Shown: piece after piece, positions 26,512-42,026 of the stretch | Numbering within the stretch: position 1 is the stretch's first letter | Layout: the number at the start of each line of letters is the position of its first letter | NCBI GenBank assembly: GCA_020353515.1 | Contig: CP070695.1 | Coordinates: 821,057 to 885,056, forward strand | Reading direction: 5' to 3' | From: Candidatus Heimdallarchaeota archaeon | GTDB taxonomy: Archaea > Asgardarchaeota > Heimdallarchaeia > Hodarchaeales > Hodarchaeaceae | Length of the DNA: 64,000 nucleotides | Translations under genes and position numbers: made by a program | Notes under the pieces: model-generated | The model's database searches: none | Told to the model about the DNA's origin: nothing | What the model saw: the letters and a program-made list of their open reading frames with translations, nothing else

Positions 26512-26610
26512 CTAAGTTGGTATGAAAGACACAAACATTTTATCACAATTTTTTTTAATCTAAAAACATCTGAAATAATTTACATTAGACATTGTTTCGT
26601 TGTGATTTAG

Positions 26611-28074
26611 ATGGAGTTAGGTACTTCGACGTACAAACCAGCCAGATTTCAAAAATTTAATTGGTCAATCGCCCGATTTGGCGATTCTATAATGGGAAAT
26701 GTTCTTTCTATTTTCGTGATCCTTTATTATTTAGAAGAGGTATTAACTCAGCCCTCAAATTTTGATGCCCTTTTAGTTACAATGATTACATTTTCAGCAA
26801 AATTGTCTGAAGGTTTAATGAATGTACCAGTTGCACGTATATCTGATAACATCAGGACTAGATGGGGTAGAAGACGTCCATTTCTTCTTTTAGCGCCAGT
26901 GTGGAGCTTTTTCTTCATTCTTGTTTTTTGGTGTCCTTTTACGGAAGATCAGGTTCCATTAATTCTATTATGGTTATTAATTAGTTATGGTGGATTTCGA
27001 TGGAGTAATGCTGCCGTTATAAATCCTCATCTAGCATTATTACCTGAAATTGCTCCAGAAAAACATCAGCGAACAGATTATCAAGCTTATAAAACGATTT
27101 TTCAATTATCAGGCACAATAATCGGAGTATTAATCTTTCCTATCCTCAGGGGTATTGTTGCGACTATCATGGGAATTGATAATCGTACAACTGCAGTGAT
27201 AGCAACAATCCCGCTTGGAATCATTGCATTTTTAGGAATGATGATAAGTTTTTTTGGTATCAGAGAAAATGAAAATGCTAGTTTAACCCATTTCGGTATG
27301 ATTGAATCTTTCAAAACGACATTTAAAAATAATTCATTTTTCCCAAGTTACTTAGCAACTGCGGCAACTGTCATGTTAGCAGAAGCTATGCTTCTTGCAG
27401 CTATTCCAATGATTGGAGTAAACGCTATTGGTTTACAACCAGATGACATAATGGTTTCTCTTTTATCTGGTTTATTTGTTATTACTGCGATTGGCGTCGT
27501 TCCTCTTATTGTTTATATTTCAAAACGAGTTGGGAAAGCACGATTATTTTACTATTGTTTTCTTTTCTTCGGAGTGTTCTCATGGTTAACTATATTAATC
27601 GGTCAAATTCCTATTATAACTCCTATAAATACTATTCAATTCACTCCAATAGAGGGGGGGTATGAACTAGTCACTAGTCCCGATTGGCGAAATTTTGTTA
27701 TAATCCAGACACTTTTGACGGTATTTTTAGTTGGAATCCCTGTTGGTGGAGTGATTCTTCTTCAATATTCTGTTTTCGCAGATGTAATCGATGTAGATGA
27801 AGAAATGACTGGTCAAAGAAGAGAGTCAATGTATTTTGCTTCCCAAGGAGTTGTAGACTGGTTTTTTGCTGCGTGCGGAGACCTAATGCTTGGGATTCTA
27901 CTTTTTCTGTTCGGTAGAGAATACTATTCTTCTACTATCGCGACAGAAGCAGGAATATTTGGTACTGGGCCCCTAGGTTTGTTATTGACTGGCCCAGTAG
28001 CGGGTACGATCTTAATTTTAGGCGCTTTTATGTTCCGTCGTTATCCTCTGATGGAAGGAAAAGAGAAAAAATAG
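26611..28074 (+). CDS. GPH-family sugar:cation symporter (MFS_2)
   Basis: 487 residues, about 12 transmembrane helices. The loop RISDNIRTRWGRRRPFLLLAP matches the glycoside-pentoside-hexuronide symporter signature D-x-x-R-T-R-W-G-R-x-R-P. A second cytoplasmic motif, DVIDVDEEMTGQRRESMYFA, occupies the place expected in the second half. It should import a glycoside or sugar with Na+ or H+; substrate unknown. The nearby glucan phosphorylase and phosphofructokinase fit a sugar-using role. Confidence 0.85.
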   Translation: MELGTSTYKPARFQKFNWSIARFGDSIMGNVLSIFVILYYLEEVLTQPSNFDALLVTMITFSAKLSEGLMNVPVARISDNIRTRWGRRRPFLLLAPVWSFFFILVFWCPFTEDQVPLILLWLLISYGGFRWSNAAVINPHLALLPEIAPEKHQRTDYQAYKTIFQLSGTIIGVLIFPILRGIVATIMGIDNRTTAVIATIPLGIIAFLGMMISFFGIRENENASLTHFGMIESFKTTFKNNSFFPSYLATAATVMLAEAMLLAAIPMIGVNAIGLQPDDIMVSLLSGLFVITAIGVVPLIVYISKRVGKARLFYYCFLFFGVFSWLTILIGQIPIITPINTIQFTPIEGGYELVTSPDWRNFVIIQTLLTVFLVGIPVGGVILLQYSVFADVIDVDEEMTGQRRESMYFASQGVVDWFFAACGDLMLGILLFLFGREYYSSTIATEAGIFGTGPLGLLLTGPVAGTILILGAFMFRRYPLMEGKEKK

Positions 28075-28115
28075 AGATTCTTTCAGTATGAGTCAATTCA
28101 TGTAGGGAATTAACT

Positions 28116-28631
28116 CTGAGAAGTTCAAAGTTCAAAAGAATTCGAGAACAGCTTCAATTTTGTAATATTTCGGGGGGAGTTTGGATTGATGCTGGTTGTG
28201 GGAAGGGTACATATACTCTTCCATTGGCAACTCTTGTTTCTCGAGTAATTGCTATCGACAACAACCGATCTGATATTTCCTTTCTTCGAGCTCAACTCCC
28301 CCAAAAAACCAATATTATTGTTTCTGAAAAAGATTTCACTAAAGATGTTCTTTCTCAAGACTTTGTTGATGGTGTATTATTCGGTTTTTCTTTACATTAT
28401 CAACCTAACTCTATCCCAGCATTAAGAAATGCCTTCAATCATCTGAAACCTAATGGTAGTATCATAATTTTTGAGTATACTCGTGATAAACCTTTACCTT
28501 GGGTTCCCTTCCCTATTCCTGAAATAAAATTAACTGAATCACTAAAAAAAATTGGATTCAGAGAAATTGAGACAATAATACAGAAAAGACGTTTTTATGT
28601 TATTCATGGTAAAAAAGTAATGAAAAAATAG
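28116..28631 (+). CDS. Class I SAM-dependent methyltransferase, unusual start
   Basis: About 171 residues if begun at CTG 28116. The SAM-binding motif I, WIDAGCGKGTYT, lies at 28182-28217, before the first conventional start (TTG at 28224), so the usual start would cut off the cofactor site. The frame is open back to 28092 with no ATG, GTG or TTG. CTG at 28116 has AGGGA seven bases upstream and is my preferred start. Later motifs: VIAIDNN (acidic loop), DGVLFGFSLHYQ (motif IV) and LKPNGSIIIFEY (motif V/VI). The substrate is unknown; the short C-terminus suggests a small-molecule or protein target. An upstream frameshift is the alternative explanation. Confidence 0.72.
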   Translation: MRSSKFKRIREQLQFCNISGGVWIDAGCGKGTYTLPLATLVSRVIAIDNNRSDISFLRAQLPQKTNIIVSEKDFTKDVLSQDFVDGVLFGFSLHYQPNSIPALRNAFNHLKPNGSIIIFEYTRDKPLPWVPFPIPEIKLTESLKKIGFREIETIIQKRRFYVIHGKKVMKK

Positions 28632-28641
28632 TCATTATCAA

Positions 28642-29061
28642 TTATGATCTCATTGGCATTACTGTGGCTTTTCCATCTACTACAAGCTCATTATGCTGAT
28701 TTGTGCAATAAGTTCTCAAAACCACTCTTTCTTTCTCATCGTCTTTATTGATCACTTCTACTGTTACTAGTATAGTATCCCCTATCCTTATAGGTTTAAT
28801 AAAAGTTAATTCCTGCTTTAAATAGATACTTCCTGGTCCTGGGAGTTCATTGGCGAGTACTGCGGAGATTAAAGCTGCAGAAAGCATACCATGTGCTATT
28901 CGTCCCTGGAAAAACGTTTTCTTAGCGTATTCTTCATCTAAATGAATCGGATTTCTGTCTCCGCTTATTTCTGCAAATTTTTTTATATCAATGTCCCTTA
29001 TAGTACGTTTAATTGAAGCTTTTTGTCCAACTTTTATTTCAGAATAACTAAATACAACCAA
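28642..29061 (-). CDS. MaoC-like (R)-specific enoyl-CoA hydratase
   Basis: 139 residues, a single hot-dog fold. The catalytic pair is in FAEISGDRNPIHLDEEYA (Asp and His of the D-x-N-x-x-H motif), followed by FFQGRIAHGMLSAALISAVL, the second family signature. Length and motifs fit PhaJ-type (R)-enoyl-CoA hydratases. It would hydrate trans-enoyl-CoA in fatty-acid-like metabolism. It converges with the methyltransferase (10 bases between stops). No other acyl-CoA gene is adjacent. Confidence 0.87.
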   Translation of the reverse strand: MVVFSYSEIKVGQKASIKRTIRDIDIKKFAEISGDRNPIHLDEEYAKKTFFQGRIAHGMLSAALISAVLANELPGPGSIYLKQELTFIKPIRIGDTILVTVEVINKDDEKERVVLRTYCTNQHNELVVDGKATVMPMRS

Positions 29062-29241
29062 TTTATCACCTTTGTTTAGAATTCTTGCATGGTTGCCTAC
29101 TAAATTGAACTTAGATAATTTTCAATAGAAAAACAAGGCCAATAAATCTCTATTTATATCAAATAGGTAGGGCCCTCTCCACTAGTATAAACGATTTCTC
29201 TTAGTACTTTTCCATATGTTCCAGATTTATAACCGATAATA

Positions 29242-31359
29242 ATGAAGGGATGCATAATGGTTGATATTCCAAAACGAATTGAAAGATTAGAGGAGCTTGC
29301 AGAGAATCTCACATGGGTATGGAACCCAAAAGCCCGTGAACTATTTAAACGTCTTGATCATCCTCTATGGGTTTATACTTACCATAATCCTGTTCGTATG
29401 CTGCAAATCATACCAAATAAAAGGTTAGATGCAGCTGCTCAGAACCCAGCTTTCCTTAAACATTATGATGGCGTCATGCATAATTTTGATCGTGATCTAG
29501 ATTCAAAGGACACATGGTTCTCAAATAACTACCCTCATTTTTCTGGGGAAATAGCTTATGTTAGCACTGAATATGGATTACATCAATCCCTCCCAATTTA
29601 TTCAGGTGGTTTAGGAATCCTTAGCGGAGATCATGTTAAGGAAAGTAGTGATTTAGGAGTTCCACTCGTAGGAGTAGGATTCGTGTATCCCCAAGGGTAT
29701 TTTACTCAGTTATTGCCAAGAAATGGGTGGCAAGAAGCGCAATATAATTACTTGAAATTTAATCAAATACCAATTAATCCTATTATCAAAAATGAAGCTG
29801 AACAATTACATATAGAACTAAAGTTCCCTAAGCCAATTTTTTTGAGAGTCTGGAACCTCAAGGTTGGAAGAACCCCACTTTATCTTATGGACACTGATAT
29901 TGATAAAAATGAACCATGGAACCGAGGTCTTTCAGCACGACTTTATGGAGGAGACCAAGAAATGAGGATACGTCAGGAAATTGTTCTTGGTTTCGGGTCT
30001 GTAAGGATTCTTTCACAACTTGGGCATAATCCAGAAGTATATCACTGTAATGAGGGTCATACTGCGTTTGTCGGCCTTGAACTTCTTCGAAGGGAGATGA
30101 TTGAGAATGGAAAGAGCTTTGAAGAAGCAACTAAAATTGTACGAAATAAGATTATTTTCACGACTCATACTCCAGTAAAAGCTGGACACGATCAATTTCC
30201 TTTTGAATTAGTATCAAAGTACTTCCAAGATTATTGGGAAAATTTGGGGATCAATCGTGATAAATTTTTAGCTCTTGGAGCATTCGATTGGGGAGATGGC
30301 CAAGGTCCAAGGTTTAATATGACGGCACTTGGTATTAGGTTAAGCCGGTATCAAAATGCTGTCTCAAAGCTCAATTGTGAAATAAGTAACAAAATGTGGA
30401 ATGGCCTTTTTTCTACACCTGAATTTGAGAACCGATTACCGATCCAGTTCGTCACCAACGGGGTTCATATTCCCACATGGATTAGCAGATCATTTCAAGC
30501 TTTATATAAAAAGTATTTAGGTAAAAATTGGATTGATAGACACGATGATCCTGACATATTCGAGAAAATTGACAATATCCCAAATAGGGAACTTTGGGCT
30601 GCCCGAGAAGAAGCAAGGGATCGGATGTTTGTATTTTTACGTGAAAGAGCCCGTATTAAAAGAATAGATGAGAATAAAGATTCCCGTCAGACCTTAGTTG
30701 CTGGAGCTCTTCTTGATCCTCATGCTTTGACAATTGGGTTTGCAAGAAGATTTGCAACTTATAAACGAGCATTTTTAATCTTTCATGATATTGAAAGACT
30801 CCGTAAAAGTCTATTGGACCGTTATACCCCTATTCAAATTATTTTCGCAGGAAAGGCTCACCCTGCTGATGATCCCGGGAAGAATGTTCTTCAACAGATT
30901 TACCAAAAGGCGGTAGATCCATCAATAGGGGGTCGAGTAGCTTTCATCGAAGATTATGATATGCAGGTAGGAAGGTACTTAGTCCAAGGCTGTGATGTGT
31001 GGCTTAATACACCCCGAAAACCTTTTGAAGCATCAGGTACTTCAGGTATGAAAGCTGCTATCAATGGGTGCCTTAACTTCTCTATTCTAGACGGGTGGTG
31101 GCCCGAAGGATATGATGGAAGTAATGGCTGGACTATTGGAGGCCAAGAGCAAAATAATATTGAAGATCAAAACCAGTATGATGTTAATTCGTTTTATAGA
31201 ATTCTAGAGGAAGAAATACGACCGTTATTTTATGATAAAGATAGTGAAGGAATACCAACGGGGTGGTGTGAAGTCGTTCGAAATTCAATTAAAAGTATAA
31301 CACCCGCTTTCTCTGCCCGAAGAATGCTTAAAGAATATGTAAAAGGATATATTCCATGA
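29242..31359 (+). CDS. glgP: Alpha-glucan (glycogen) phosphorylase
   Basis: 705 residues of the shorter archaeal and bacterial glucan phosphorylase type with the N-terminal DUF3417 region (LEELAENLTWVWNPKAREL). Signatures: YCNEGH-like VYHCNEGHTAFVGLEL, FTTHTPVKAGHDQF, FARRFATYKRA, and the PLP lysine in EASGTSGMKAAINGCLNFSI followed by DGWWPEGYDGSNGW. It splits glucan with phosphate to glucose-1-P. The start could be Met6, which has AAGGGATG upstream. It precedes phosphofructokinase in this metabolic stretch. Family call is firm. Confidence 0.94.
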   Translation: MKGCIMVDIPKRIERLEELAENLTWVWNPKARELFKRLDHPLWVYTYHNPVRMLQIIPNKRLDAAAQNPAFLKHYDGVMHNFDRDLDSKDTWFSNNYPHFSGEIAYVSTEYGLHQSLPIYSGGLGILSGDHVKESSDLGVPLVGVGFVYPQGYFTQLLPRNGWQEAQYNYLKFNQIPINPIIKNEAEQLHIELKFPKPIFLRVWNLKVGRTPLYLMDTDIDKNEPWNRGLSARLYGGDQEMRIRQEIVLGFGSVRILSQLGHNPEVYHCNEGHTAFVGLELLRREMIENGKSFEEATKIVRNKIIFTTHTPVKAGHDQFPFELVSKYFQDYWENLGINRDKFLALGAFDWGDGQGPRFNMTALGIRLSRYQNAVSKLNCEISNKMWNGLFSTPEFENRLPIQFVTNGVHIPTWISRSFQALYKKYLGKNWIDRHDDPDIFEKIDNIPNRELWAAREEARDRMFVFLRERARIKRIDENKDSRQTLVAGALLDPHALTIGFARRFATYKRAFLIFHDIERLRKSLLDRYTPIQIIFAGKAHPADDPGKNVLQQIYQKAVDPSIGGRVAFIEDYDMQVGRYLVQGCDVWLNTPRKPFEASGTSGMKAAINGCLNFSILDGWWPEGYDGSNGWTIGGQEQNNIEDQNQYDVNSFYRILEEEIRPLFYDKDSEGIPTGWCEVVRNSIKSITPAFSARRMLKEYVKGYIP

Positions 31360-31375
31360 AGAATGTCGTTCTCTT

Positions 31376-31978
31376 TTAACCAGTTAGCATCTTTTGAGCA
31401 TTCTCTTGCCAAGTTTTGATCTGCTTGTCACTTTTTCGGCCGATCATTGTTGCAATCTCCTGACTGTGTTTACTTAATAAATCCCCAATTGTTTTGATGT
31501 TGGTTGCAACTAATTTATCAAAAGCTGCCTTTCCAATTCCCTTCACTTCTGAAACAGAAGTTAATGTATTTATAGTCGGTGCTGCAACAGTTGGTTTCAC
31601 AGGTTCCGCTACTGGTTCTGGTATTGGTTCTGGTGGTTTTTCAACAGGTTTTATTTTTCCCTTGACTTTGATTGGAGGTTTAGGTACTGGTTTAGGTTTT
31701 TCCTTTTTAGGCTTAGTTTTTGGTTGTACTTTAAGAGAAGGCGCCTTTTGAAATAACTTTCCAGTTTCAATGCAAAGCCAAAGATGTTGTTGTTTAGATG
31801 GATCATCAGGAAGGTAATGATACCCAATATCATAAATAGCCCCAGGACACGATTCTTTGTGCAACGCTTTAGCCACTCGTTTTGTTTTTGGAATGTATTT
31901 CTTCACCCAATGCTTACCAATAATATAAGTGTCACCTGGTTTTCCTAGTGTGTGTTTCCACAACATTAATAATACCAC
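31376..31978 (-). CDS. Helix-hairpin-helix protein with Pro/Lys-rich linker
   Basis: 200 residues. A folded N-terminal part (about 1-85, KHTLGKPGDTYIIGKHWVKK ... HLWLCIETGKLF) is joined by a Pro/Lys/Val-rich linker (about 90-140) to a C-terminal helix-hairpin-helix (VKGIGKAAFDKLVATNIKTI), the type seen in DNA-binding and DUF4332-like proteins. The linker probably makes the two ends independent. It is convergent with glgP. Function unknown; DNA or RNA contact through the HhH is plausible. Confidence 0.65.
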   Translation of the reverse strand: MVLLMLWKHTLGKPGDTYIIGKHWVKKYIPKTKRVAKALHKESCPGAIYDIGYHYLPDDPSKQQHLWLCIETGKLFQKAPSLKVQPKTKPKKEKPKPVPKPPIKVKGKIKPVEKPPEPIPEPVAEPVKPTVAAPTINTLTSVSEVKGIGKAAFDKLVATNIKTIGDLLSKHSQEIATMIGRKSDKQIKTWQENAQKMLTG

Positions 31979-32115
31979 TTTTCGATTAAACTGTTTGAAG
32001 ACGAGTTTTCAAAAAAACTATAACAGTTTCTCTTAATCTAGGAACAAGACTCTTAAGAACTTAAATCGTGTGAAAATCTTACTAATAAGTTATCTAATGA
32101 ATGTGGTGATTATAA

Positions 32116-33105
32116 ATGCAAAGTAACGAGCAAAGAAAGAGAATTGGAGTATTCTGTAGTGGGGGTGATGCTCCAGGTATGAATGCTTGTTTGCGAGCTG
32201 TAGTACGAAGAGGTATTGCGAAAAAACTTAATATAATTGCAATCCACAGAGGATTTCAGGGTATTTTCGATGAAGCATTTGAGAAAATGACTCCCCGTTC
32301 TGTTGGAAATATTCTCCAACTAGGCGGAACTATCATAAAAACCGCAAGATGTAAGAAGTTTTATTCAATAGAGGGGGTATTAGAGGCAGTGACTATATTA
32401 AAAAAACACAGATTGGATGGATTAATAGCAATAGGGGGAGATGGAACATTTCGTGGTTTATTAGAATTAAAAAAACTTTGGGATGGCCAAGTCATAGGGA
32501 TTCCAGGAACAATCGATAATGATATTTTTGGCACAGATTATACTATTGGTTATGACACTGCAATCGATACTGTTATTCAAATGCTTGATCGAATCAGAGA
32601 TACAGCAGAGTCACATGAACGTGCATTTGTTGTTGAAGTTATGGGACGTCATACAGGTTTTATCGCTCTCAAGGTGGGGATAGGATGTGGAGCTGAGGAG
32701 GTATTGATCCCAGAACATACTATTGATTTAGAAACTGTAGCTAGGCGTGTAAAGGTAGCTCAGAAACGAGGGAAAAAAAGTATTATCATCATAGTAGCGG
32801 AAGGGGTAAGTAAAGGTAACATTTTTGATTTTTGTAATCGTTTAACTACCCAAAAAGGATTGGAATTTCAAACACACATATCTATTTTAGGCCACGTACA
32901 ACGTGGAGGGTCACCAAGCGCTCTTGACCGATGGCTGGCAACACGACTTGGTGCATTCGCCGTCGACTGTGTTTTAAAAGGGGATACAGGAATTATGGTG
33001 GGTGAACAGAATCTCCAATTAGTAAAAATTCCCCTTGAGGATACACAAAAGAAAAAACCCATTGATTCCTATGCTTATGAAATAATTCACGATCTTGCGA
33101 TTTAA
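32116..33105 (+). CDS. pfkA: 6-phosphofructokinase, ATP-type signature
   Basis: 329 residues. Nucleotide loop GVFCSGGDAPGMNACLRAVV (11-30), IAIGGDGTFRG (105-115), catalytic PGTIDNDIFGTD (130-141), MGRHTGFIAL, and the sugar-phosphate stretch ILGHVQRGGSPSALDR. Glycines at GGDG and PGT (E. coli positions 104 and 124) are those of ATP-dependent enzymes; PPi-dependent ones carry Asp and Lys there. It makes fructose-1,6-bisphosphate in glycolysis. Many archaea use ADP-dependent kinases, so a bacterial-type PfkA suggests old transfer. GGTGAT five bases before the ATG is an excellent ribosome site. Followed by the C69 gene after 33 bases. Confidence 0.93.
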   Translation: MQSNEQRKRIGVFCSGGDAPGMNACLRAVVRRGIAKKLNIIAIHRGFQGIFDEAFEKMTPRSVGNILQLGGTIIKTARCKKFYSIEGVLEAVTILKKHRLDGLIAIGGDGTFRGLLELKKLWDGQVIGIPGTIDNDIFGTDYTIGYDTAIDTVIQMLDRIRDTAESHERAFVVEVMGRHTGFIALKVGIGCGAEEVLIPEHTIDLETVARRVKVAQKRGKKSIIIIVAEGVSKGNIFDFCNRLTTQKGLEFQTHISILGHVQRGGSPSALDRWLATRLGAFAVDCVLKGDTGIMVGEQNLQLVKIPLEDTQKKKPIDSYAYEIIHDLAI

Positions 33106-33138
33106 TGGTTAAAGAACAGTAAAAAGAGGTCACTTTAC

Positions 33139-34272
33139 ATGTGTGATACTTTCGTTGCACTCGGATCAGCTACTATTGATGGTAAGGTGATTTTTGGAAA
33201 AAATAGTGACAGACCATATCTAGAAAAACAAACAATTGTGTATTTCCCAAGAAAACAATATACAGATGAAACTGTTCTTAAATGTACTCACATCTCCATC
33301 CCACAAGTCGAGGAAACACATGCAGTTTTACTTTCAAAACCTAGTTGGATGTGGGGGGCAGAGATGGGAGCTAATGAAAAGAATGTCGTAATTGGCAATG
33401 AAGCCATATTCGACACAAAAGAACCTTTAGGACCCCCTTCATTAATTGGAATGGACTTAGTTCGTCTCGCTCTCGAGCGATCTTCAACCACTATTCAGGC
33501 TGTCCACATTATTTGCGAATTGCTAGAGACATACAATCAAGGAGGAGCATGCGCGGAAGATGATCCGACGTTAATGTACCATAATTCCTTTCTCATAGCA
33601 GATTCTAATGAAGCCTGGGTTCTAGAAACCGCAGGGAAGTGGTGGATTGCTCAACAGATTAAAGACGGATTTAGAAATATCTCAAATTCTTTGTCAATTC
33701 GATCAGAATATACTCTTGCCAAAGAAGGGATTGTAGATTATGTCCTTGATAAAGACTATTGTGACAACCGTGGAGAGTTTAATTTTGCAAAATGCTTTAC
33801 TAAAGGTTTTTATCAAACCCCTTCAAGATATTCACGGGAAGGTTGGGGAAATTATCTTTTACAATTAAATTCTGGAAACATTGGTCCAAAAATTATGATG
33901 GAGATCCTCCGTGATCATTATGGGGGTATCTGTATGCATGGGGCCTTCCGAACGACCGCTTCTCAGGTTTCTTATCTTTCGAGAAAGAATACTATTCATT
34001 GGATGACAGGATCACCACACCCATGTGTTAGTTTCTTTAAACCATTTGTTGTTCCAAGGCAAAATCAACCTATAGAAATTGACATCTTTTCACAAAGAGA
34101 TAATCTCAATCTATTAGAAAAACAGGCTATAATTCAGGAACTACATTCTTTCGAGCAAGAATTAATCCAATCTATTCAAAATATAATCCAGACCGATAAT
34201 TGGTTAATGAAAGATATTCAGACTCTCACCCAGGAAGCTCTAAAGCGTGAGTATTCATTAATTTCGGCGTGA
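33139..34272 (+). CDS. Family C69 dipeptidase (secernin-like Ntn hydrolase)
   Basis: 377 residues. It begins MCDTFVALG: Cys2 becomes the N-terminal nucleophile after removal of Met or a short peptide, as in secernins. VIFGKNSDRPYLEKQ supplies the Ntn-fold Asn-Ser-Asp-Arg strand. GEE- and HGAFRTTASQV-type stretches occur later as in family C69. A dipeptidase or amidase role is likely; substrate not evident. It directly follows pfkA with an AGAGGTCAC ribosome site and probably shares its transcript. Confidence 0.87.
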   Translation: MCDTFVALGSATIDGKVIFGKNSDRPYLEKQTIVYFPRKQYTDETVLKCTHISIPQVEETHAVLLSKPSWMWGAEMGANEKNVVIGNEAIFDTKEPLGPPSLIGMDLVRLALERSSTTIQAVHIICELLETYNQGGACAEDDPTLMYHNSFLIADSNEAWVLETAGKWWIAQQIKDGFRNISNSLSIRSEYTLAKEGIVDYVLDKDYCDNRGEFNFAKCFTKGFYQTPSRYSREGWGNYLLQLNSGNIGPKIMMEILRDHYGGICMHGAFRTTASQVSYLSRKNTIHWMTGSPHPCVSFFKPFVVPRQNQPIEIDIFSQRDNLNLLEKQAIIQELHSFEQELIQSIQNIIQTDNWLMKDIQTLTQEALKREYSLISA

Positions 34273-34521
34273 TGGGTGATTATTGCTTCTATTTGTTTGG
34301 ATCAACTAAATTTCTCTTTTAACCGAGACAATATAAATGGTGAGGACCATCAAACTCGTTTCTTAATGTGTTTACTTGAAAATTCATTGTAAAAACTTCT
34401 TAATTCACTTGACTTAATAGCTACTTTGAAGAGGTTTATTCAGAAATTTTTTTTATGAAAGGCTTTTTTCTGATTATTATAAAAAAAAAATAGATTCCCA
34501 TATCATTATTCAAATGCATTT

Positions 34522-35703
34522 TTGGAGATACCATTGGAACACGTTAAAAGGCAAAATTTGTCGTCTTTTTATTCGGCTTTCAATCTCCTAGAAAAAACAG
34601 CGAAAAGAACGGTAAATTCGATAAATGAAAATCCTCCTTGCCTTGTAGAATTTTGTAAAACACTTGAAGAAGCGAAAGAGAAAGACAAGAGGATACATCT
34701 CGTGGGGATGGGTAGATCAGGAAAAGTAGGTATGTTATTAGGGGAATTATTAAAAAATGTAGGTTATAAAGTCTCATATTTAGGTAAAAGTCTTGCCAAA
34801 CCAGTCCGAAGAGATGATGTAGTTATTGGTATCACTGGTTCAGGATGGACTAGCTTCACGATAAATACCTTACAGGAATCAATTAGTAGAGGCGCAAAAA
34901 TTTTAGTTTTCACTGGTGACCAGCATTCTCTTGCAGCAAGATTAGCAGATTCAATTATTCTTATCCCACGGGGATATGTGAAGGAAAAGTTCGCTCCTGT
35001 TTCTCATGCTGCCTTAACACCTGTTTCTCACGCACCTCTTACCCCACTTGGCACAGTATTTGAAATGACATCTATGTGTATTGGTATTGGTGTAATTTTA
35101 GGACTCCGAGACGACTCATCTGTTAAAGGGTTTAATGAAAGTGTAAATGAAGTTTTAAGAGCAGCAGAAATGACTTTAGACAATATTAAGAGAAACGAAC
35201 AACCTTTACTGCAGTTTGTCACTCTCCTTGAAAGTTATTCCAGCCAATCAGGTAAAATGCTATTTGTCTATGGTAGTGGCCTAGATTCAATTATCGCAAG
35301 TATTTCCTCTATTAGATTAAGTCATCTAAGAATTAATTGTAAATCAAATTATGATTGGAGATTCAGAGGGAAAAAAGACTTACTTATTGGAATCTCGGGT
35401 TCAGGTGTATCCACAAGTACTTTAGAACGTGTTGAAAGTGCGAAATCCGCCCATATGCGCATAGTTGGGTTAACATCTTTTTCAGAATCAGAATTAGCTA
35501 GAAAATCAGATATTTTTCTCCCTATTGAGGGAAGAACAGAAAAGATAAGTGCTGATTTACATCAAATATCGAATCTTAGCTTCTTAATTCCTTCATTTGA
35601 ATACGCGGCCGCAATTACTTTAGATTCATGTGTTGCTCAATTAGCAATGGATCTAGGCATTAGTGAGAGAGAAATGAAAGAAGAGCATGCGAATATTGAA
35701 TGA
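34522..35703 (+). CDS. Double SIS-domain protein, 6-phospho-3-hexuloisomerase-like
   Basis: 393 residues from a TTG start. The first half resembles 6-phospho-3-hexuloisomerase (PHI): HLVGMGRSGKVGMLLGELLK, ITGSGWTSFTINTL (GISGSGETT in PHI), and APLTPLGTVFEMTSM. The second half repeats the fold (LFVYGSGLDSI, LIGISGSGVSTSTLERVES) but diverges. PHI is normally about 185 residues, so this is a duplicated form. A tandem duplication gives PVSHAALT-PVSHAPLT at 34996-35043. PHI interconverts fructose-6-P and hexulose-6-P. The HPS domain that needs this product is fused to the oxidoreductase encoded convergently next door, which supports the call. The Glu of the PHI GSGE motif is Trp here, so activity is not certain. 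Confidence 0.75.
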   Translation: MEIPLEHVKRQNLSSFYSAFNLLEKTAKRTVNSINENPPCLVEFCKTLEEAKEKDKRIHLVGMGRSGKVGMLLGELLKNVGYKVSYLGKSLAKPVRRDDVVIGITGSGWTSFTINTLQESISRGAKILVFTGDQHSLAARLADSIILIPRGYVKEKFAPVSHAALTPVSHAPLTPLGTVFEMTSMCIGIGVILGLRDDSSVKGFNESVNEVLRAAEMTLDNIKRNEQPLLQFVTLLESYSSQSGKMLFVYGSGLDSIIASISSIRLSHLRINCKSNYDWRFRGKKDLLIGISGSGVSTSTLERVESAKSAHMRIVGLTSFSESELARKSDIFLPIEGRTEKISADLHQISNLSFLIPSFEYAAAITLDSCVAQLAMDLGISEREMKEEHANIE

Positions 35704-35705
35704 TT

Positions 35706-36005
35706 TCAGAGTCCAAGCTTAAAAAATCCACCTGCGATTAGTGGAAAAATGGACACCTCACAGTCGTGACTTAAGCTAGTATCTAATCCCTCCAGAGCAA
35801 GTATATTTCGTCCATCAATAAGAATTGTAAATCCTTTTTTTAATTCTTCATTTTCTAAAAAGAAAGAACTTCCTTTTTTACCAGATTTCGATTGAAAAAA
35901 GTCGAAAATCTGCCTCAATTCTATAGGTTCCTTAATAACAATATTATGAGTTTCTCCAAATTCCAATTGTAAAATGGCAAAAAAAATGAGCCTTATTGTA
36001 ATCAT
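35706..36005 (-). CDS. MoaD/ThiS-like beta-grasp protein
   Basis: 99 residues with the beta-grasp pattern of molybdopterin-synthase small subunits: RLIFFAILQLEFGE, ILIDGRNILALEG, DCEVSIFPLIAGG. The usual terminal Gly-Gly is followed here by FFKLGL, so a thiocarboxylate could form only after trimming, or not at all. Its ATG overlaps the stop of the aldehyde oxidoreductase gene (ATGA), which fits supply of the tungstopterin cofactor to that enzyme. Such MoaD-like genes often accompany tungsten oxidoreductases. Confidence 0.8.
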   Translation of the reverse strand: MITIRLIFFAILQLEFGETHNIVIKEPIELRQIFDFFQSKSGKKGSSFFLENEELKKGFTILIDGRNILALEGLDTSLSHDCEVSIFPLIAGGFFKLGL

Positions 36006-38455
36006 TGGTCTTTACTCGTCAAAATTACATTTTTAAGATGTAGAGTTGCTTGTTGTGGATTAGCTGACCTTGTAATTGCTGAACCTACAATGATGATATC
36101 AGCACCACATTCGATAGCTTTCGGAATGGTTTCCGCTTTCAGTCCACCCGCTACTGCAATTGGAATCTTGATAATCTCTCTTAATCTTTTTAATGTGGGA
36201 AAAGGAATTTTATCAAAATCTGATCGCAGTTGTTGATCTATACCTATGTGTAATCCAATAATATCCACACCAAGCTTTTCCAAATCAATGGCTCGGTTAA
36301 TAGGATCCTTTATCCCAATTAAATCGGCGAAAATTTTGACTCCAAATTTTTTTCCTGCCCCAACAGCATCTTTAATGGTACTATCTGGAGCTATACCTAA
36401 AATACATACAATATCAGCACCAGCTAACGCAGCCATCTCTGTTTCTAAATAGCTCGCATCCATTGTCTTAAGGTCAGCAACAATTGTTTTGTGAGGAAAG
36501 AGCTGACGTAATTTACTAACTGATTCTATACCAGTTGCTTTAATTAAAGGGGTGCCCGCTTCAATCCAGTCCACGCCTCCCAAAGCACTTTTCTGAGCTA
36601 TTTTAAGGGCTTCATCCAGATCGCGAAGATCTAAAGCAATTTGAAGTTTTGTATGAGTTTTAATAGGTTGAATATTAAGCTCTCCTAATTTTCGATCTGA
36701 AGGGATTCCTAAATCTCCCCAGCCTCTGATATTATAATATTCTTTTAAAAGACCATTAATATTAAGGGTGTGACCCTTAGCTGGTCCTTCAGGTAACGAT
36801 TCTTTTTGAAATCTTGAAGGGAGGACATCATTTTCTTTTGTCAATCCTTCTCGAATATTAAACAAGCGTTCTAAATTGTAAATTCTTTCTCCAATTTTCC
36901 TGAACTCATCCTCATCAATATAAAAACCAGTAGCGGTAGTTAAAAGCTTCGCATAAATTTCGACTTCGCACTTAAACGTTGAGAATACAGCCATTGCAGT
37001 GAATTTACACCATTCAGCAGAATCGAGAGCAGCAAATACATCCTGCAAATTTTTGACTAGATTCGCTTTTTCCTCTTCTGCAAAGGGGTCGACAAAATGG
37101 GGTAAGCTTAATACTTCTTGAATAACAGTGTAAGCTTTTAAATGGGTTCCCCCACTATTGGAGGTGACGTAGCTAAGTGCCATGCCCTTTATTCCTCTTG
37201 GATCATAAGCAGGTAATTCCAAGCCTTTAACATGGCATGCAAACTTTGTTGTTTCCTTACCAATTTGATTAGCGGCATTTCTTACTCCGTTTGCCAATAA
37301 GTCACCTTCATTCCTTCGATAAGCAATATTTTCTATTAATGAAAGAAGCGCTTGACCATCACCAAATGGTATAGCGTTAGGAATGATTTTTTTTTCACTA
37401 CATTCCATAAACCATCCAATAACGTTTCCAGTAGAAATAGTATCTAATCCTAGCTTGTTACAAAGCGAATTAGCTTTAAATATAGTCTCAAGATCGCTTA
37501 TACCGCAATTAGGACCTAGAGCCCATAATGATTCATATTCAGGACCTTGTGTTTCTATCTCCTTGTATTTCATGATCCTCCCGCAAGCAATAGGACAGCC
37601 TCGGCAAGGTTCTTTCTTCACTAAGTATTCCCTAAGTGTTTCACCTGCAATTTGACGTACATCATCAAAAATACCAGTACTGAAGTTTTTAACAGGAAGT
37701 ACACCGTGCTTATTTACAATGTTAACAAGAATAGGAGTTCCATAAAGTCCCATTCCAGTTCCTGTCACAGGGTGCCCCTTTAAGATCTCTAAAAACTTTT
37801 TATTAACCTTCCGAAACGCGTGTTGGTTAACAGGGACGACTTTTCCATTTCCTCGAACTACAACAGCTTTAAGCTTTTTTGAACCCCAAACAGCTCCAAT
37901 ACCTCCTCTCCCTGCAGTTCTTGTTCCATTGATTACGCAGGCAAAATGAACTAGATTTTCCCCTGCAGGACCTATAGCTGCAACAGAATGACCACTGTGA
38001 CGCTTTTTTAGTAATCCTTCTGTTTCATCGATAGTTTTCCCCCATAGATTCGTGGCATCTTGAATTAAAACGTTCTTTGCATTTATTAAAAGATAAACAG
38101 GGGTATCAGACGCATCCTCGATAATAATACCATCATAACCTGCTCGTTTTATCTCAATCCCTAGTCTTCCCCCACAATGAGTATCATTAAGGGTTCGTTC
38201 TGTGAGTGGACTCTTGAAAACCATACACCACCTCGAAGTAGTAGGAGATGTTGTTCCTGTCATTGGCCCTGTCATAATGACAACTTTATTATCTGCGCTT
38301 AACGGATTAATCCCTGATTTAAGCTCGTCATACAAAATTTTAACGCCATACCCTCTTCCTCCAAGGTATTCTTGAGCGATATCAAGGTTTATTGGTTCTC
38401 TTTTGATCTCTTTTGTCTTTAAATTAACTCTCAGAATATGATTAGCGTAGGTCAC
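36002..38455 (-). CDS. Aldehyde (formaldehyde):ferredoxin oxidoreductase fused to 3-hexulose-6-phosphate synthase
   Basis: 817 residues, two complete enzymes in one frame. Residues 1 to about 597 are a tungstopterin aldehyde:ferredoxin oxidoreductase: GGRGYGVKILYDEL, HCGGRLGIEIKRAGYDGIII, AGRGGIGAVWGSKKLKAVVV, the 4Fe-4S ligands Cys284, Cys287 and Cys291 (CRGCPIAC) with Cys483 (AEWCKF), and the usual end YYNIRGWGDLGIPS. Residues about 598-817 are an OMP-decarboxylase-superfamily HPS: WIEAGTPLIKATG, ADLKTMDAS (Asp661, Lys663, Asp666), LHIGIDQQ (His736), VAGGL, VGSAIT. HPS cleaves hexulose-6-P to ribulose-5-P and formaldehyde (or the reverse); the oxidoreductase would oxidise formaldehyde to formate and reduce ferredoxin. 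The length equals the sum of the two families. Start supported by the family N-terminus. Confidence 0.92.
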   Translation of the reverse strand: MTYANHILRVNLKTKEIKREPINLDIAQEYLGGRGYGVKILYDELKSGINPLSADNKVVIMTGPMTGTTSPTTSRWCMVFKSPLTERTLNDTHCGGRLGIEIKRAGYDGIIIEDASDTPVYLLINAKNVLIQDATNLWGKTIDETEGLLKKRHSGHSVAAIGPAGENLVHFACVINGTRTAGRGGIGAVWGSKKLKAVVVRGNGKVVPVNQHAFRKVNKKFLEILKGHPVTGTGMGLYGTPILVNIVNKHGVLPVKNFSTGIFDDVRQIAGETLREYLVKKEPCRGCPIACGRIMKYKEIETQGPEYESLWALGPNCGISDLETIFKANSLCNKLGLDTISTGNVIGWFMECSEKKIIPNAIPFGDGQALLSLIENIAYRRNEGDLLANGVRNAANQIGKETTKFACHVKGLELPAYDPRGIKGMALSYVTSNSGGTHLKAYTVIQEVLSLPHFVDPFAEEEKANLVKNLQDVFAALDSAEWCKFTAMAVFSTFKCEVEIYAKLLTTATGFYIDEDEFRKIGERIYNLERLFNIREGLTKENDVLPSRFQKESLPEGPAKGHTLNINGLLKEYYNIRGWGDLGIPSDRKLGELNIQPIKTHTKLQIALDLRDLDEALKIAQKSALGGVDWIEAGTPLIKATGIESVSKLRQLFPHKTIVADLKTMDASYLETEMAALAGADIVCILGIAPDSTIKDAVGAGKKFGVKIFADLIGIKDPINRAIDLEKLGVDIIGLHIGIDQQLRSDFDKIPFPTLKRLREIIKIPIAVAGGLKAETIPKAIECGADIIIVGSAITRSANPQQATLHLKNVILTSKDQ

Positions 38456-38603
38456 AATCTTAACCAGCTCTCAGGGCGATTTTACTCTTCACGATTTCTG
38501 ATAACAGCTGCTTATGATGGTTTTACATTTTTTTCCACAACAATAATTCCTTTAATTCCCTCTAAAAATACGTGTTTAAATCTTGAATCTATGAGGCTTA
38601 TTT

Positions 38604-39716
38604 ATGTACTCGAATTTTAACGAAAATTTGGCAAAACTAATCATTCAATATTCTGTTAATGTAAAGAAAAATGACCTTGTGTTAATTCAGGCTTCAATTA
38701 ACGCTGAGAACCTTGTCCGAGAGATATTTAAGGAAAGTATCCGAGTAGGCGCAAATATTTTAAGAATGAAATTCAGGTTTGATGGTCAGGACGAGATATT
38801 TTACAAATATGCTTCTGATGCTCAATTACAATACGTTGACGAGCTTGAAATTGAGTTATGGAAGAAAGCTAATGTACTAATAGCAATCGATTCTGACTAT
38901 AATACCCGGGAATTAACTAATGTCGCAGCAGATAAGAAAGTGATGCTAAGAGAGGCAAGGAAGGAAATCACAAAAATATATCTTGAACGAGCAGCTAAAA
39001 AGGAATTAAGATGGAATTTATCTCCTTATCCTTGTAATGCACATGCTCAAGAGGCACAAATGGGAGGAATGGAATACTTAGAATTTGTATATAAAGCACT
39101 GAATCTTCATCAAGAAGATCCTGTTAGTTTCTGGAAGGGCGTGGAAAAGAAACAGCAGAAAATAGTAGATATATTAAACAAGGGTTCAGAAATGCAGATA
39201 ATAGGTGAAGATACAGACTTAACTTTAGCGATTGAAAATCGAAAATGGGAGAATTGTTGTGGCCACGAGAATCTTCCGGATGGAGAAGTTTTTACGGGCC
39301 CACATGAAGATGGGGTTAATGGAACAATTCGGTTTACCTATCCAGGGATATATGAAGGCCAAGAGATCGAGGATATTCATTTAACGTTCAAGGAGGGAAA
39401 AGTAACAGATTTCAACGCAGTAAAAGGAAAAGAGCTTTTAGAAAAAATGTTAACTATTTCTAACGCGAATATTATTGGAGAACTAGCTGTAGGCACAAAT
39501 TTTGCAATAAATAAATTTACTAAGAACATGCTGTTCGACGAAAAAATGGGTGGTACCGTTCATCTTGCCCTAGGCTCTGGCTATCCTGAAACTGGTTCAA
39601 AAAATCAATCATCCATTCATTGGGACATTCTGAAAGAAATGAAGAGTGATGAATCAATAATATTTTTAGATGAAGAGATGATTTATAAAGCTGGAAAATG
39701 GTTAATCCCAAAATAA
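38604..39716 (+). CDS. M29-family metalloaminopeptidase
   Basis: 370 residues. Family M29 (AmpS/AmpT type) features: N-terminal NLAKLIIQYSVNVKKNDLVL, then the metal-site region LPDGEVFTGPHEDGVNGTIR, NANIIGELAVGTN (Glu), GGTVHLALGSGYPETGSKN (His) and SIHWDIL (His-x-Asp). It should remove N-terminal residues from peptides in the cytoplasm using two cobalt or zinc ions. M29 enzymes are about 370-410 residues, so this is full length. Divergent from the oxidoreductase-HPS gene. Confidence 0.9.
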   Translation: MYSNFNENLAKLIIQYSVNVKKNDLVLIQASINAENLVREIFKESIRVGANILRMKFRFDGQDEIFYKYASDAQLQYVDELEIELWKKANVLIAIDSDYNTRELTNVAADKKVMLREARKEITKIYLERAAKKELRWNLSPYPCNAHAQEAQMGGMEYLEFVYKALNLHQEDPVSFWKGVEKKQQKIVDILNKGSEMQIIGEDTDLTLAIENRKWENCCGHENLPDGEVFTGPHEDGVNGTIRFTYPGIYEGQEIEDIHLTFKEGKVTDFNAVKGKELLEKMLTISNANIIGELAVGTNFAINKFTKNMLFDEKMGGTVHLALGSGYPETGSKNQSSIHWDILKEMKSDESIIFLDEEMIYKAGKWLIPK

Positions 39717-39725
39717 TATCTATTA

Positions 39726-42026
39726 CTAAAGATGAATAACGTCACCACTTTGTAACGATTCAAGGGCAGCACGTGCGACTCGAAGAGCAGAAATACCATC
39801 AGAAATAGGAATAGGTACTTCTTCATCATTTAATATCGCTTTGGCAAATGCACCAACTTGATCAACAAAAAATGGTAATTGATCAAATTCTTCTAAAGTT
39901 GGTTCAAGTCCGTCTAATTCAGTATTTTTAACAGCAGGCTGTTTTGATGGATCAATCTGGATGGTTCCGTCCTCACCATAAACAAACATCTTTGTATTAT
40001 TTCCAACTTGGTCTCTGAGGTCTGCCTCGGCCCAGGAAGCTTCTATTGTAATCAATACCCCTGATTGAGATTGGAGAGTAATGACAACAGTATCCCATGT
40101 ATCAATCTCAGGATAAACAGAATTTGATCCAATTGCATAAACAGTTTTTATCGGATCATTTGGACCTAGAAACCATTGAACTAGATCAATATCGTGTATT
40201 GCTAGATCTACAGCTATCCCCCCACTTTTATCAATGTTCCAAAACCAATCTGCTACTGGTGGTCCTCTTCCCCTTCGGTGCGCATGAATGGAAACTATGG
40301 AACCAATCTCACCTTTATCTATTACCCTTTTTGTAGTAGAATAGTGAGACATAAACCGACATATCATTGCAACCATTAGTTTGACATTATTTTTCTTTAA
40401 TTCATGTTCAACTGCTTTTAACTCTTCTGGATGTAATAATATGGGTTTCTCACAAAGAATATGTTTTCCTGCATTTGCTGCAGCGACAATGTATTCTTTA
40501 TGAACGAAAGTTGGCACACAGATTGATACTGCTTGTAATTGAGGATCATTGAGAGCTTCAAGATAATCCTCGTAAATATTGGTTACCCCAAAAAATAATG
40601 CTGCTCCTTGAAGTGATACTGGATTTCGTGTAGCAAACGAGTGCAATTCTGTCCATGAGCAAGCAGAATAAGCAGCAGCATGAACTTGCCCGATCCCTCC
40701 CAATCCAATTACCCCTATTTTTAAGGGATTGTCGACTTTTGGAATACCTGAAATTAGTTCATACACTTTTGGAGAAGTCCTTGTAGAAAGCATTGTACCA
40801 ATGATTCGTTCCTTAATTCCGAGTTTAGTATTCAATATTTCTTCCATTTCTCTTAAAAATTTTCCAGCAATCAAAGATAACTCAATATAAGACAATTGAT
40901 GCCAATTAGGTAAACCAATTACATTTTCAGTAATTTTATCTGTAATAGGACAGCGGGAATCAGTATAGAACACTTCTTGTTCAAAAAAAGGACAAGTAAA
41001 TGGGCATTTACGGTTTCCATAACCCATTCTCTCCTTAAAGAGAGTAGAAGTGTAAAGACCAGCAGGATAAATTAACTGTGTTATCTGAAAGTCACGATTA
41101 AGACGATCAGCCAATTCTTTTCCCGTCATCCCAACTATTGATGGATCTATTTGTAGAGCATAAGCATGGAATACATGTTTTCCATTCTCTGGCATTTGAG
41201 GTAAGGCTACCCCTGGAATATCTTTTAATAATGAATTTAAATATAATGAGTTCTTAATTCGTCCATCATTCATCTGATCAAGTTTTTTTAGTTGTTCTAA
41301 GCCAATTGCTGCCTGTATGGTTGTCATACGATAATTATAACCTAATCTCTCATATGTGTACCAAGATGGTTCCCCATGATGTCTAACTAATCGGCATTGC
41401 TCAGCAAATTCGGGGTCATCAGTAACTATAATACCTCCCTCACCAGTCATCATATTTTTGGATTCAAAGAGACTAAAACATCCTGCCTTTCCAAATGTCC
41501 CTATTTTTTTCCCATCATATTCTGCTCCATGAGCTTGACATGCATCCTCAATCAAAACTAAGTTATGTTTTTCAGCAAACTCAAGAAGAGATGTTAAGTC
41601 CATTGGATAACCAAATAAATGTACAGGGATAATTGCTTTTGTTTGGTCAGTTACCTTATTCTTTAAGTCAGTAGGATCCATACAAAAGGTATTAGGGTCA
41701 ATGTCAACAAATACTGGAATAGCATTTTGATGTAGAACAGCTGTGGCTGTAGCAACAAATGTATAAGGTGGAATTAAGACTTCATCTCCAGCTCCAATTC
41801 CAGCAGCAGCTAAAGACACATGTAAAGCAGCCGTTCCTGAACTAACAGCAATAGCGTACTTAGCACCCATGTAATTAGCAAATGCTGTTTCAAACTCCTC
41901 TATTTCAGTACCACTCATGAAAGTTAAACGTTTATCACGCATAACACGCTTTACAGCCAAGATCTCTTCCCGTTCAACTTTTCGATCCATTGGGAATAGA
42001 TCTCGGGGTTTAATTTTACGGGTCAT
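39726..42026 (-). CDS. DegT/DnrJ aminotransferase fused to Gfo/Idh/MocA dehydrogenase
   Basis: 766 residues. Residues 1 to about 405 are a DegT/DnrJ/EryC1/StrS PLP aminotransferase: VSSGTAALHVSLAAAGIGAG, IEDACQAHGAEYDGKKIG, PLP Lys190 in FSLFESKNMMTGEGG, and LGYNYRMTTIQAAIG. Residues about 434-766 are a Gfo/Idh/MocA NAD(P) oxidoreductase: IGVIGLGGIGQVHAAAY, CEKPILLHPEEL (EKP, 526-528), and AVDLAIHDIDLVQWFLG (Asp607, His611). In known amino-sugar pathways separate members of these families oxidise a sugar hydroxyl and then aminate the keto group, so one chain could run both steps. The product could be an amino-nucleotide sugar or aminocyclitol for surface glycans. A three-Cys stretch (CPFTCPF ... 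CPITD, about 341-360) is unusual for DegT. Confidence 0.92.
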   Translation of the reverse strand: MTRKIKPRDLFPMDRKVEREEILAVKRVMRDKRLTFMSGTEIEEFETAFANYMGAKYAIAVSSGTAALHVSLAAAGIGAGDEVLIPPYTFVATATAVLHQNAIPVFVDIDPNTFCMDPTDLKNKVTDQTKAIIPVHLFGYPMDLTSLLEFAEKHNLVLIEDACQAHGAEYDGKKIGTFGKAGCFSLFESKNMMTGEGGIIVTDDPEFAEQCRLVRHHGEPSWYTYERLGYNYRMTTIQAAIGLEQLKKLDQMNDGRIKNSLYLNSLLKDIPGVALPQMPENGKHVFHAYALQIDPSIVGMTGKELADRLNRDFQITQLIYPAGLYTSTLFKERMGYGNRKCPFTCPFFEQEVFYTDSRCPITDKITENVIGLPNWHQLSYIELSLIAGKFLREMEEILNTKLGIKERIIGTMLSTRTSPKVYELISGIPKVDNPLKIGVIGLGGIGQVHAAAYSACSWTELHSFATRNPVSLQGAALFFGVTNIYEDYLEALNDPQLQAVSICVPTFVHKEYIVAAANAGKHILCEKPILLHPEELKAVEHELKKNNVKLMVAMICRFMSHYSTTKRVIDKGEIGSIVSIHAHRRGRGPPVADWFWNIDKSGGIAVDLAIHDIDLVQWFLGPNDPIKTVYAIGSNSVYPEIDTWDTVVITLQSQSGVLITIEASWAEADLRDQVGNNTKMFVYGEDGTIQIDPSKQPAVKNTELDGLEPTLEEFDQLPFFVDQVGAFAKAILNDEEVPIPISDGISALRVARAALESLQSGDVIHL

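What the first reader, a model, noticed from the sequence alone, without database searches (positions are those of the whole stretch)
34522..38455. Aldehyde oxidoreductase fused to hexulose-phosphate synthase, next to a PHI-like gene and a MoaD-like gene
One 817-residue chain joins a complete tungstopterin aldehyde:ferredoxin oxidoreductase (Cys284/287/291/483 cluster ligands) to a complete 3-hexulose-6-phosphate synthase (Asp661, Lys663, Asp666, His736). The double-SIS protein beside it resembles 6-phospho-3-hexuloisomerase, and a MoaD-like cofactor gene is coupled by an ATGA overlap. Known biochemistry: PHI and HPS turn fructose-6-P into ribulose-5-P and formaldehyde in archaea lacking the oxidative pentose pathway; formaldehyde:ferredoxin oxidoreductases make formate and reduced ferredoxin. 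Inference: this is a self-contained unit that makes pentose phosphate and handles formaldehyde by channelling. I know of no described fusion of these two enzymes.
Basis: partly seen in the sequence, partly recalled or inferred. Interest (0 to 1): 0.88.

Follow-up and report, generated by a model that had tools for sequence, protein, structure and literature searches.

The report
Formaldehyde-releasing and aldehyde-oxidising enzymes fused together
An Asgard archaeon of the group proposed to be closest to eukaryotes carries one protein that joins the enzyme splitting a six-carbon sugar phosphate into pentose phosphate plus formaldehyde to a tungsten enzyme of a kind that oxidises aldehydes, which suggests, though it does not prove, that cells make pentose without letting toxic formaldehyde escape.

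Summary
One 817-residue frame (36002-38455, minus strand) joins a complete AOR-family tungstoenzyme to a complete hexulose-phosphate synthase (HPS), with hardly any linker. It is not an assembly join: the same junction is read in five Asgard genomes of two classes (69-82% identical to the window), and both halves evolve like coding sequence. A MoaD-like gene follows it in all five.

The strongest new evidence is a gene swap. In close relatives, the slot beside the same PHI-like double-SIS gene is filled by a stand-alone HPS of a different lineage. No genome of the genus has both forms. This ties the fusion to HPS function and the double-SIS protein to PHI function.

The genome has no detectable Fae, G6PDH or transketolase, but has ribose-5-phosphate isomerase, FTHFS and 6PGDH.

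Most likely the unit runs F6P to hexulose-6-P to Ru5P plus formaldehyde, then oxidises the formaldehyde to formate with ferredoxin. Direction, the AOR substrate and channelling are inferred, not shown. I found no published AOR-HPS fusion. HPS fusions as such are known, so this is a new variant of a known kind.

The parts
36671..38455 (-). AOR half of the fusion, residues 1-595 (tungstopterin aldehyde oxidoreductase; 4Fe-4S ligands C284, C287, C291, C483; E308 and H438 at the active site)
36017..36655 (-). HPS half of the fusion, residues 601-813 (D609, E632, D661/K663/D666, D711, H736, I739, A769)
36002..38455 (-). whole AOR-HPS fusion gene, 817 aa
35706..36005 (-). MoaD/SAMP-like ubiquitin-fold protein, ATGA-overlapped with the fusion; conserved behind the fusion in all five genomes
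34522..35703 (+). double-SIS PHI-like gene, convergent to the fusion operon; next to an HPS gene (fused or stand-alone) in eight genomes of the genus
32116..33105 (+). 6-phosphofructokinase family gene, linked to the unit in L009, G007 and G005 as well
29242..31359 (+). alpha-glucan/glycogen phosphorylase family gene in the same syntenic block (82% identical in G007)
38604..39716 (+). M29-family peptidase between the fusion and the DegT gene; not beside the fusion in L009, probably not part of the unit

Best explanation
The gene encodes a two-enzyme protein of the reversed ribulose-monophosphate route. The double-SIS protein isomerises fructose-6-phosphate to hexulose-6-phosphate. The HPS half splits that into ribulose-5-phosphate and formaldehyde. 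The AOR half oxidises the formaldehyde to formate and reduces ferredoxin, pulling an otherwise unfavourable cleavage forward and keeping formaldehyde off the free pool. The MoaD-like protein serves tungstopterin cofactor supply. Net: F6P to Ru5P + formate + reduced ferredoxin, in place of the Fae/tetrahydromethanopterin sink used elsewhere. Shown: the fusion, its conservation, its catalytic residues, the slot swap with a stand-alone HPS, the linkage to a PHI-like gene, and the failure to detect Fae, G6PDH and transketolase. Inferred: formaldehyde as the AOR substrate, the direction, the role of MoaD, and hand-over between the sites.
For: HPS identity: TIGR03128 over cut-off; HPS-type D711/I739/A769 where KGPDC has E112/R139/T169 (signature table in PMC5980557). 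Slot swap: G007:C470 matches the window from 23017 to 42026, but between the double-SIS gene (83%) and the DegT gene (75%) it has a 225-aa stand-alone HPS, best hit Fae-HPS PRK13307, instead of the fusion. The same convergent double-SIS/HPS pair is in G001, G002, G008 and G010. Fused and stand-alone HPS are separate, well-supported clades, one HPS per genome in the genus. The HPS type changes at least twice on the double-SIS tree (AU p 0.018). Pathway context: Fae in 0 of 16 genomes, G6PDH not found, transketolase not found, ribose-5-P isomerase present, FTHFS present in four of five carriers. Glucan phosphorylase and phosphofructokinase lie in the same block. Unfused AOR lies convergent to Fae-HPS in G086 and G093. 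An AOR-family enzyme oxidises formaldehyde with Km 93 uM (PMC10816221). The formate/formaldehyde couple is about -450 to -650 mV (PMC7143981), so oxidation with ferredoxin is downhill.
Against: No biochemistry exists. The AOR half groups with broad-range AORs, not FOR. 6PGDH offers a second route to Ru5P in this genome. The double-SIS protein is below the PHI cut-off, and the fusion lacks an adjacent double-SIS gene in Harpocratesius. G007 and G009 hold a separate canonical PHI. No structural evidence for channelling.
Confidence: 0.6

Rival explanations
1. The fusion runs in the reductive direction: the AOR half reduces formate to formaldehyde with low-potential ferredoxin and the HPS half fixes it onto Ru5P, assimilating formate into hexose.
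For: AORs can reduce acids (PMC9295118 abstract; one of the nearest solved AORs, 9g7j, is from Clostridium autoethanogenum). A formate-to-formaldehyde-to-RuMP route has been proposed for Desulfurococcus (PMC7143981). HPS equilibrium favours fixation (general knowledge).
Against: The formate/formaldehyde couple lies at -450 to -650 mV, uphill for ordinary ferredoxin. Continuous fixation needs Ru5P regeneration, but transketolase and G6PDH were not found. The gene neighbours are glycogen breakdown and phosphofructokinase.
Confidence: 0.13
2. A formaldehyde (and general aldehyde) detoxification protein: HPS traps exogenous formaldehyde on Ru5P while AOR burns formaldehyde or other aldehydes; pentose supply comes mainly from gluconate through 6PGDH.
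For: 6PGDH lies next to an FGGY kinase in this genome. HPS/PHI serve detoxification in many bacteria (general knowledge). The genome has about ten AOR-like loci.
Against: 6PGDH was not found in the other four fusion carriers (G003, G009, G091, G136), so it cannot be their common pentose source (G003 and G009 are only 70-74% complete). No formaldehyde-generating gene was seen nearby.
Confidence: 0.14
3. The two halves are both active but unrelated in chemistry: the AOR half oxidises another aldehyde and the fusion reflects only co-expression or oligomer stability.
For: AOR half closest to broad-range AORs; Pyrococcus AOR and HPS are both oligomeric (general knowledge); the domain geometry could not be modelled.
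Against: The one aldehyde that HPS releases or uses is formaldehyde. The fused form persists in two Asgard classes, and unfused AOR also sits convergent to Fae-HPS in G086 and G093.
Confidence: 0.12
4. Frameshift or assembly join of two neighbouring genes.
For: One public record (CP070760) shows the gene split.
Against: That record is 2.1-kb pieces joined by 100-N gaps, with a gap at the break, and still reads through the AOR/HPS junction. Three further genomes, among them the 4.36-Mb Harpocratesius contig, read through the junction.
Confidence: 0.01

Closest known systems
Bifunctional HPS-PHI (NF041755; archaeal type, structure 9lj9)
   Same: 9lj9 is the nearest solved relative of the HPS half; same pathway step; an HPS fused to a pathway neighbour
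   Different: The partner is a tungsten aldehyde oxidoreductase at the N-terminus, not PHI at the C-terminus; PHI is a separate double-SIS gene
Bifunctional Fae-HPS (PRK13307)
   Same: HPS joined to the enzyme that disposes of formaldehyde; the stand-alone HPS in the swapped slot belongs to this lineage
   Different: Disposal by oxidation rather than by condensation with tetrahydromethanopterin; Fae not found in these genomes
HPS-RraA (PRK07028)
   Same: Nearest HPS sequences in other Asgard genomes (about 50% identical), in 440-470-aa proteins
   Different: Partner domain unrelated
Pyrococcus aldehyde:ferredoxin oxidoreductase (1aor) and relatives 9g7j, 9mqx
   Same: Domains, cluster cysteines and active-site Glu/His; about 40% identity
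   Different: No C-terminal HPS in any solved relative
Formaldehyde:ferredoxin oxidoreductase (1b25)
   Same: Predicted reaction
   Different: More distant in sequence (337 against 516 bits)

Membership tests
Tungstopterin aldehyde oxidoreductase (AOR) family | AFOR_N and AFOR_C domains above gathering score | tested here: met
   (251.6 and 454.6 bits)
Tungstopterin aldehyde oxidoreductase (AOR) family | Four Cys ligands of the 4Fe-4S cluster and active-site Glu/His | tested here: met
   C284, C287, C291, C483, E308, H438
Tungstopterin aldehyde oxidoreductase (AOR) family | Bound tungsten, aldehyde oxidation with ferredoxin | not testable with these tools
   needs purified protein
Formaldehyde:ferredoxin oxidoreductase (FOR) | Closest characterised relative is FOR | tested here: not met
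   1aor 516 bits, 1b25 337, WOR5 199
3-Hexulose-6-phosphate synthase | TIGR03128 equivalog cut-off of 200 bits | tested here: met
   210.2 and 214.4 bits
3-Hexulose-6-phosphate synthase | HPS rather than KGPDC residues (Asp/aliphatic/Ala at KGPDC 112/139/169) and DxKxxD plus His | tested here: met
   D711, I739, A769; D661, K663, D666, H736
6-Phospho-3-hexuloisomerase (double-SIS partner) | TIGR03127 cut-off of 160 bits | tested here: not met
   126.8 bits summed over two halves; the halves share the SIS motifs
6-Phospho-3-hexuloisomerase (double-SIS partner) | Gene adjacent to an HPS gene | tested here: met
   adjacent to an HPS gene, fused or stand-alone, in eight genomes of the genus
Fae-HPS formaldehyde sink | Fae domain present in the genome | tested here: not met
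   0 of 16 genomes; methanogen controls positive
MoaD-like sulphur carrier | ThiS/MoaD fold with terminal Gly-Gly | tested here: inconclusive
   GG conserved, but six residues (FFKLGL) follow it in the window and a short tail in G003

The most novel reading that the evidence does not exclude
A ferredoxin-linked pentose-forming enzyme: one protein converts hexulose-6-phosphate to ribulose-5-phosphate plus formate, handing formaldehyde from the HPS to the tungsten site, so that Hodarchaeales and some Loki-type archaea have a formate-yielding, ferredoxin-reducing counterpart of the oxidative pentose phosphate pathway.
Probability: 0.45. Interest if true: 0.85.

Novelty: new variant of a known kind. 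Interest (0 to 1): 0.7.

Why it matters
How archaea without Fae dispose of the formaldehyde made when they form pentose by reversed RuMP is, to my knowledge, unsettled, and the substrates of most AOR paralogues in Asgard archaea are unknown. A fusion names a substrate and a sink in one chain and can be tested with one purified protein. It also adds to the central metabolism of the archaeal order proposed as sister to eukaryotes.

Tried and rejected
Assembly or frameshift artefact: rejected. HPS half being KGPDC or OMP decarboxylase: rejected by score and diagnostic residues. A mobile-element insertion splitting the gene in G009: at first suspected from the 6.4-kb separation, rejected because of the 100-N joins. 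The M29 peptidase as part of the unit: rejected, not beside the fusion in L009. Geometry of the two active sites: the AlphaFold model from six sequences has pLDDT about 80-90 for most of HPS but under 50 for most of AOR domains 2-3, so relative placement is not readable; the fold search only confirms both folds. The tree of the double-SIS gene has a very long outgroup, so its root is not used. Literature: no paper holding AOR + HPS + fusion; Asgard papers mention HPS and AOR separately. Fusions outside Asgard were searched only by a single-sequence pattern scan of one genome per species, which would miss distant ones.
Full report
WHAT IS THERE. The frame 36002-38455 (-) encodes 817 residues: AOR domains 1-3, followed after about five residues by HPS. 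The gene ends in ATGA, which starts a 99-aa MoaD/SAMP-like protein (35706-36005, -). Convergent to it lies a 393-aa double-SIS protein (34522-35703, +).

WHERE IT COMES FROM. The window lies in a 4.94-Mb single-contig genome. Named matches are Hodarchaeota CSMAG_10 (74% over all 817 residues), Heimdallarchaeota bin272 (82% to residue 670) and Candidatus Harpocratesius repetitus (69%). From contig lengths and coordinates, the first two correspond to G003 and G009, of the window's own genus, and the third to G136, which is in another class (Lokiarchaeia according to PMC8813620). In 228 Asgard genomes searched, five carry the fusion: three of twelve in the window's genus and two in the Harpocratesius genus. 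The nearest unfused AORs are 51% identical or less.

NOT AN ARTEFACT. The AOR/HPS junction is read through in four genomes besides the window, and aligns without gaps in all five. The one split copy (G009 = CP070760) is broken further on, inside HPS, exactly at a run of 100 N, in a record made of 2.1-kb pieces joined by such runs. Both halves show third-position-biased change.

THE HPS HALF IS AN HPS. It passes the TIGR03128 cut-off. It keeps the catalytic residues and has Asp711, Ile739 and Ala769 where KGPDC has Glu112, Arg139 and Thr169. Its nearest solved relative is the HPS-PHI enzyme 9lj9. In Asgard, its nearest relatives are mostly 440-470-aa HPS proteins; the one tested is HPS-RraA.

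THE AOR HALF. It is closest to Pyrococcus AOR (516 bits), then 9mqx and 9g7j, and further from FOR (337 bits). Cluster cysteines, Glu308 and His438 are kept. AOR-family enzymes can oxidise formaldehyde: Km 93 uM, Vmax 25 umol/min/mg in Thermoanaerobacter X514, with a preference for acetaldehyde (PMC10816221).

THE SLOT SWAP. G007:C470 matches the window gene by gene from 23017 to 42026: glucan phosphorylase 82%, phosphofructokinase 80%, C69 peptidase 66%, double-SIS 83%, DegT fusion 75%. In the place of MoaD plus AOR-HPS plus M29 it has one stand-alone HPS. That HPS is 35% identical to the fused one and scores best against Fae-HPS. The same pair (double-SIS convergent to a stand-alone HPS) is in G001, G002, G008 and G010. 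In the genus, six genomes have the stand-alone form, three the fusion and three neither; none has both (with so few genomes, non-overlap alone is not significant). Both Harpocratesius genomes have the fusion and a weak stand-alone homologue. The fused HPS form one clade (100/99) and the stand-alone ones of the genus another (100/98). On the double-SIS tree the HPS type changes at least twice, and a single split is rejected at p 0.018. So two distinct HPS lineages have been exchanged beside one PHI-like gene. This is the best evidence for the function of both genes.

PATHWAY CONTEXT. In this genome Fae, G6PDH and transketolase were not found with profiles that ring in control genomes; ribose-5-P isomerase and FTHFS were. 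A full-length 6PGDH is present, next to an FGGY-family kinase, which suggests gluconate use and means that Ru5P can have a second source. 6PGDH was not found in G003, G009, G091 or G136, which also carry the fusion. No canonical PHI passes the cut-off in this genome; the double-SIS protein is the best candidate. Its N-half keeps GxGRSG, TGSG and PLGTxFE, its C-half SGSG and the terminal HANIE, which fits a duplicated PHI, but activity is not shown.

DIRECTION. The linkage to glycogen breakdown and phosphofructokinase, the lack of detected enzymes to regenerate Ru5P from hexose, and the low potential of formate/formaldehyde (PMC7143981) favour hexose to pentose with formaldehyde oxidised. Eme et al. 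(PMC10307638) inferred reversed RuMP as a key pathway of the Asgard ancestor and a partial oxidative pentose pathway in Heimdallarchaeia, which agrees with a 6PGDH without detected G6PDH here. Formate could then enter folate through FTHFS, present in four of five carriers.

LIMITS. No structure could show whether the two sites communicate. Absence claims are by profile search; an unrelated archaeal G6PDH (such as the halophile SDR type) was not tested. Searches outside Asgard were shallow.

Noticed in passing
window 35706-36005: The MoaD-like protein has six residues (FFKLGL) after its Gly-Gly, and the G003 copy has a short tail too, while in G009, G136 and G091 Gly-Gly is terminal; trimming would be needed before activation.
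   Followed up: partly
window 39726-42026: A 766-aa fusion of a DegT/DnrJ aminotransferase with a GFO/IDH/MocA oxidoreductase, conserved in G007 (75%), probably for sugar-nucleotide synthesis.
   Followed up: no
L049 (CP070760, bin272): The public record titled a chromosome is built of about 2.1-kb pieces joined by 100-N runs, in an order that splits genes; gene-order or pseudogene claims from it are unsafe.
   Followed up: partly
L093:4081-7746: AOR frames of about 1,220 aa, twice the usual length, recur in family f9 genomes (G119, G129, G141, G145, G218), with a MoaD-like gene beside the one looked at; the extra half was not identified.
   Followed up: no
L085:3735-6980 and L086:6441-10704: In two genomes of family f18 an unfused AOR lies convergent to an HPS gene (shown to be Fae-HPS in L085), a separate link between AOR and HPS.
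   Followed up: partly
L126:5985-7151: A second double-SIS paralogue (45-46% identical) elsewhere in the window's genome, substrate unknown.
   Followed up: no
G000:C1:1779492-1781156: FTHFS is present in four of five fusion carriers plus G007, and not found in five stand-alone-HPS genomes; this may reflect shared use of formate, or kinship.
   Followed up: no
L049:4238-4525 and L081:5361-5705: A DUF211 protein lies just upstream of the fusion in G009, and a similar-looking small protein just upstream of the stand-alone HPS in G004; similarity of the two was judged by eye.
   Followed up: no
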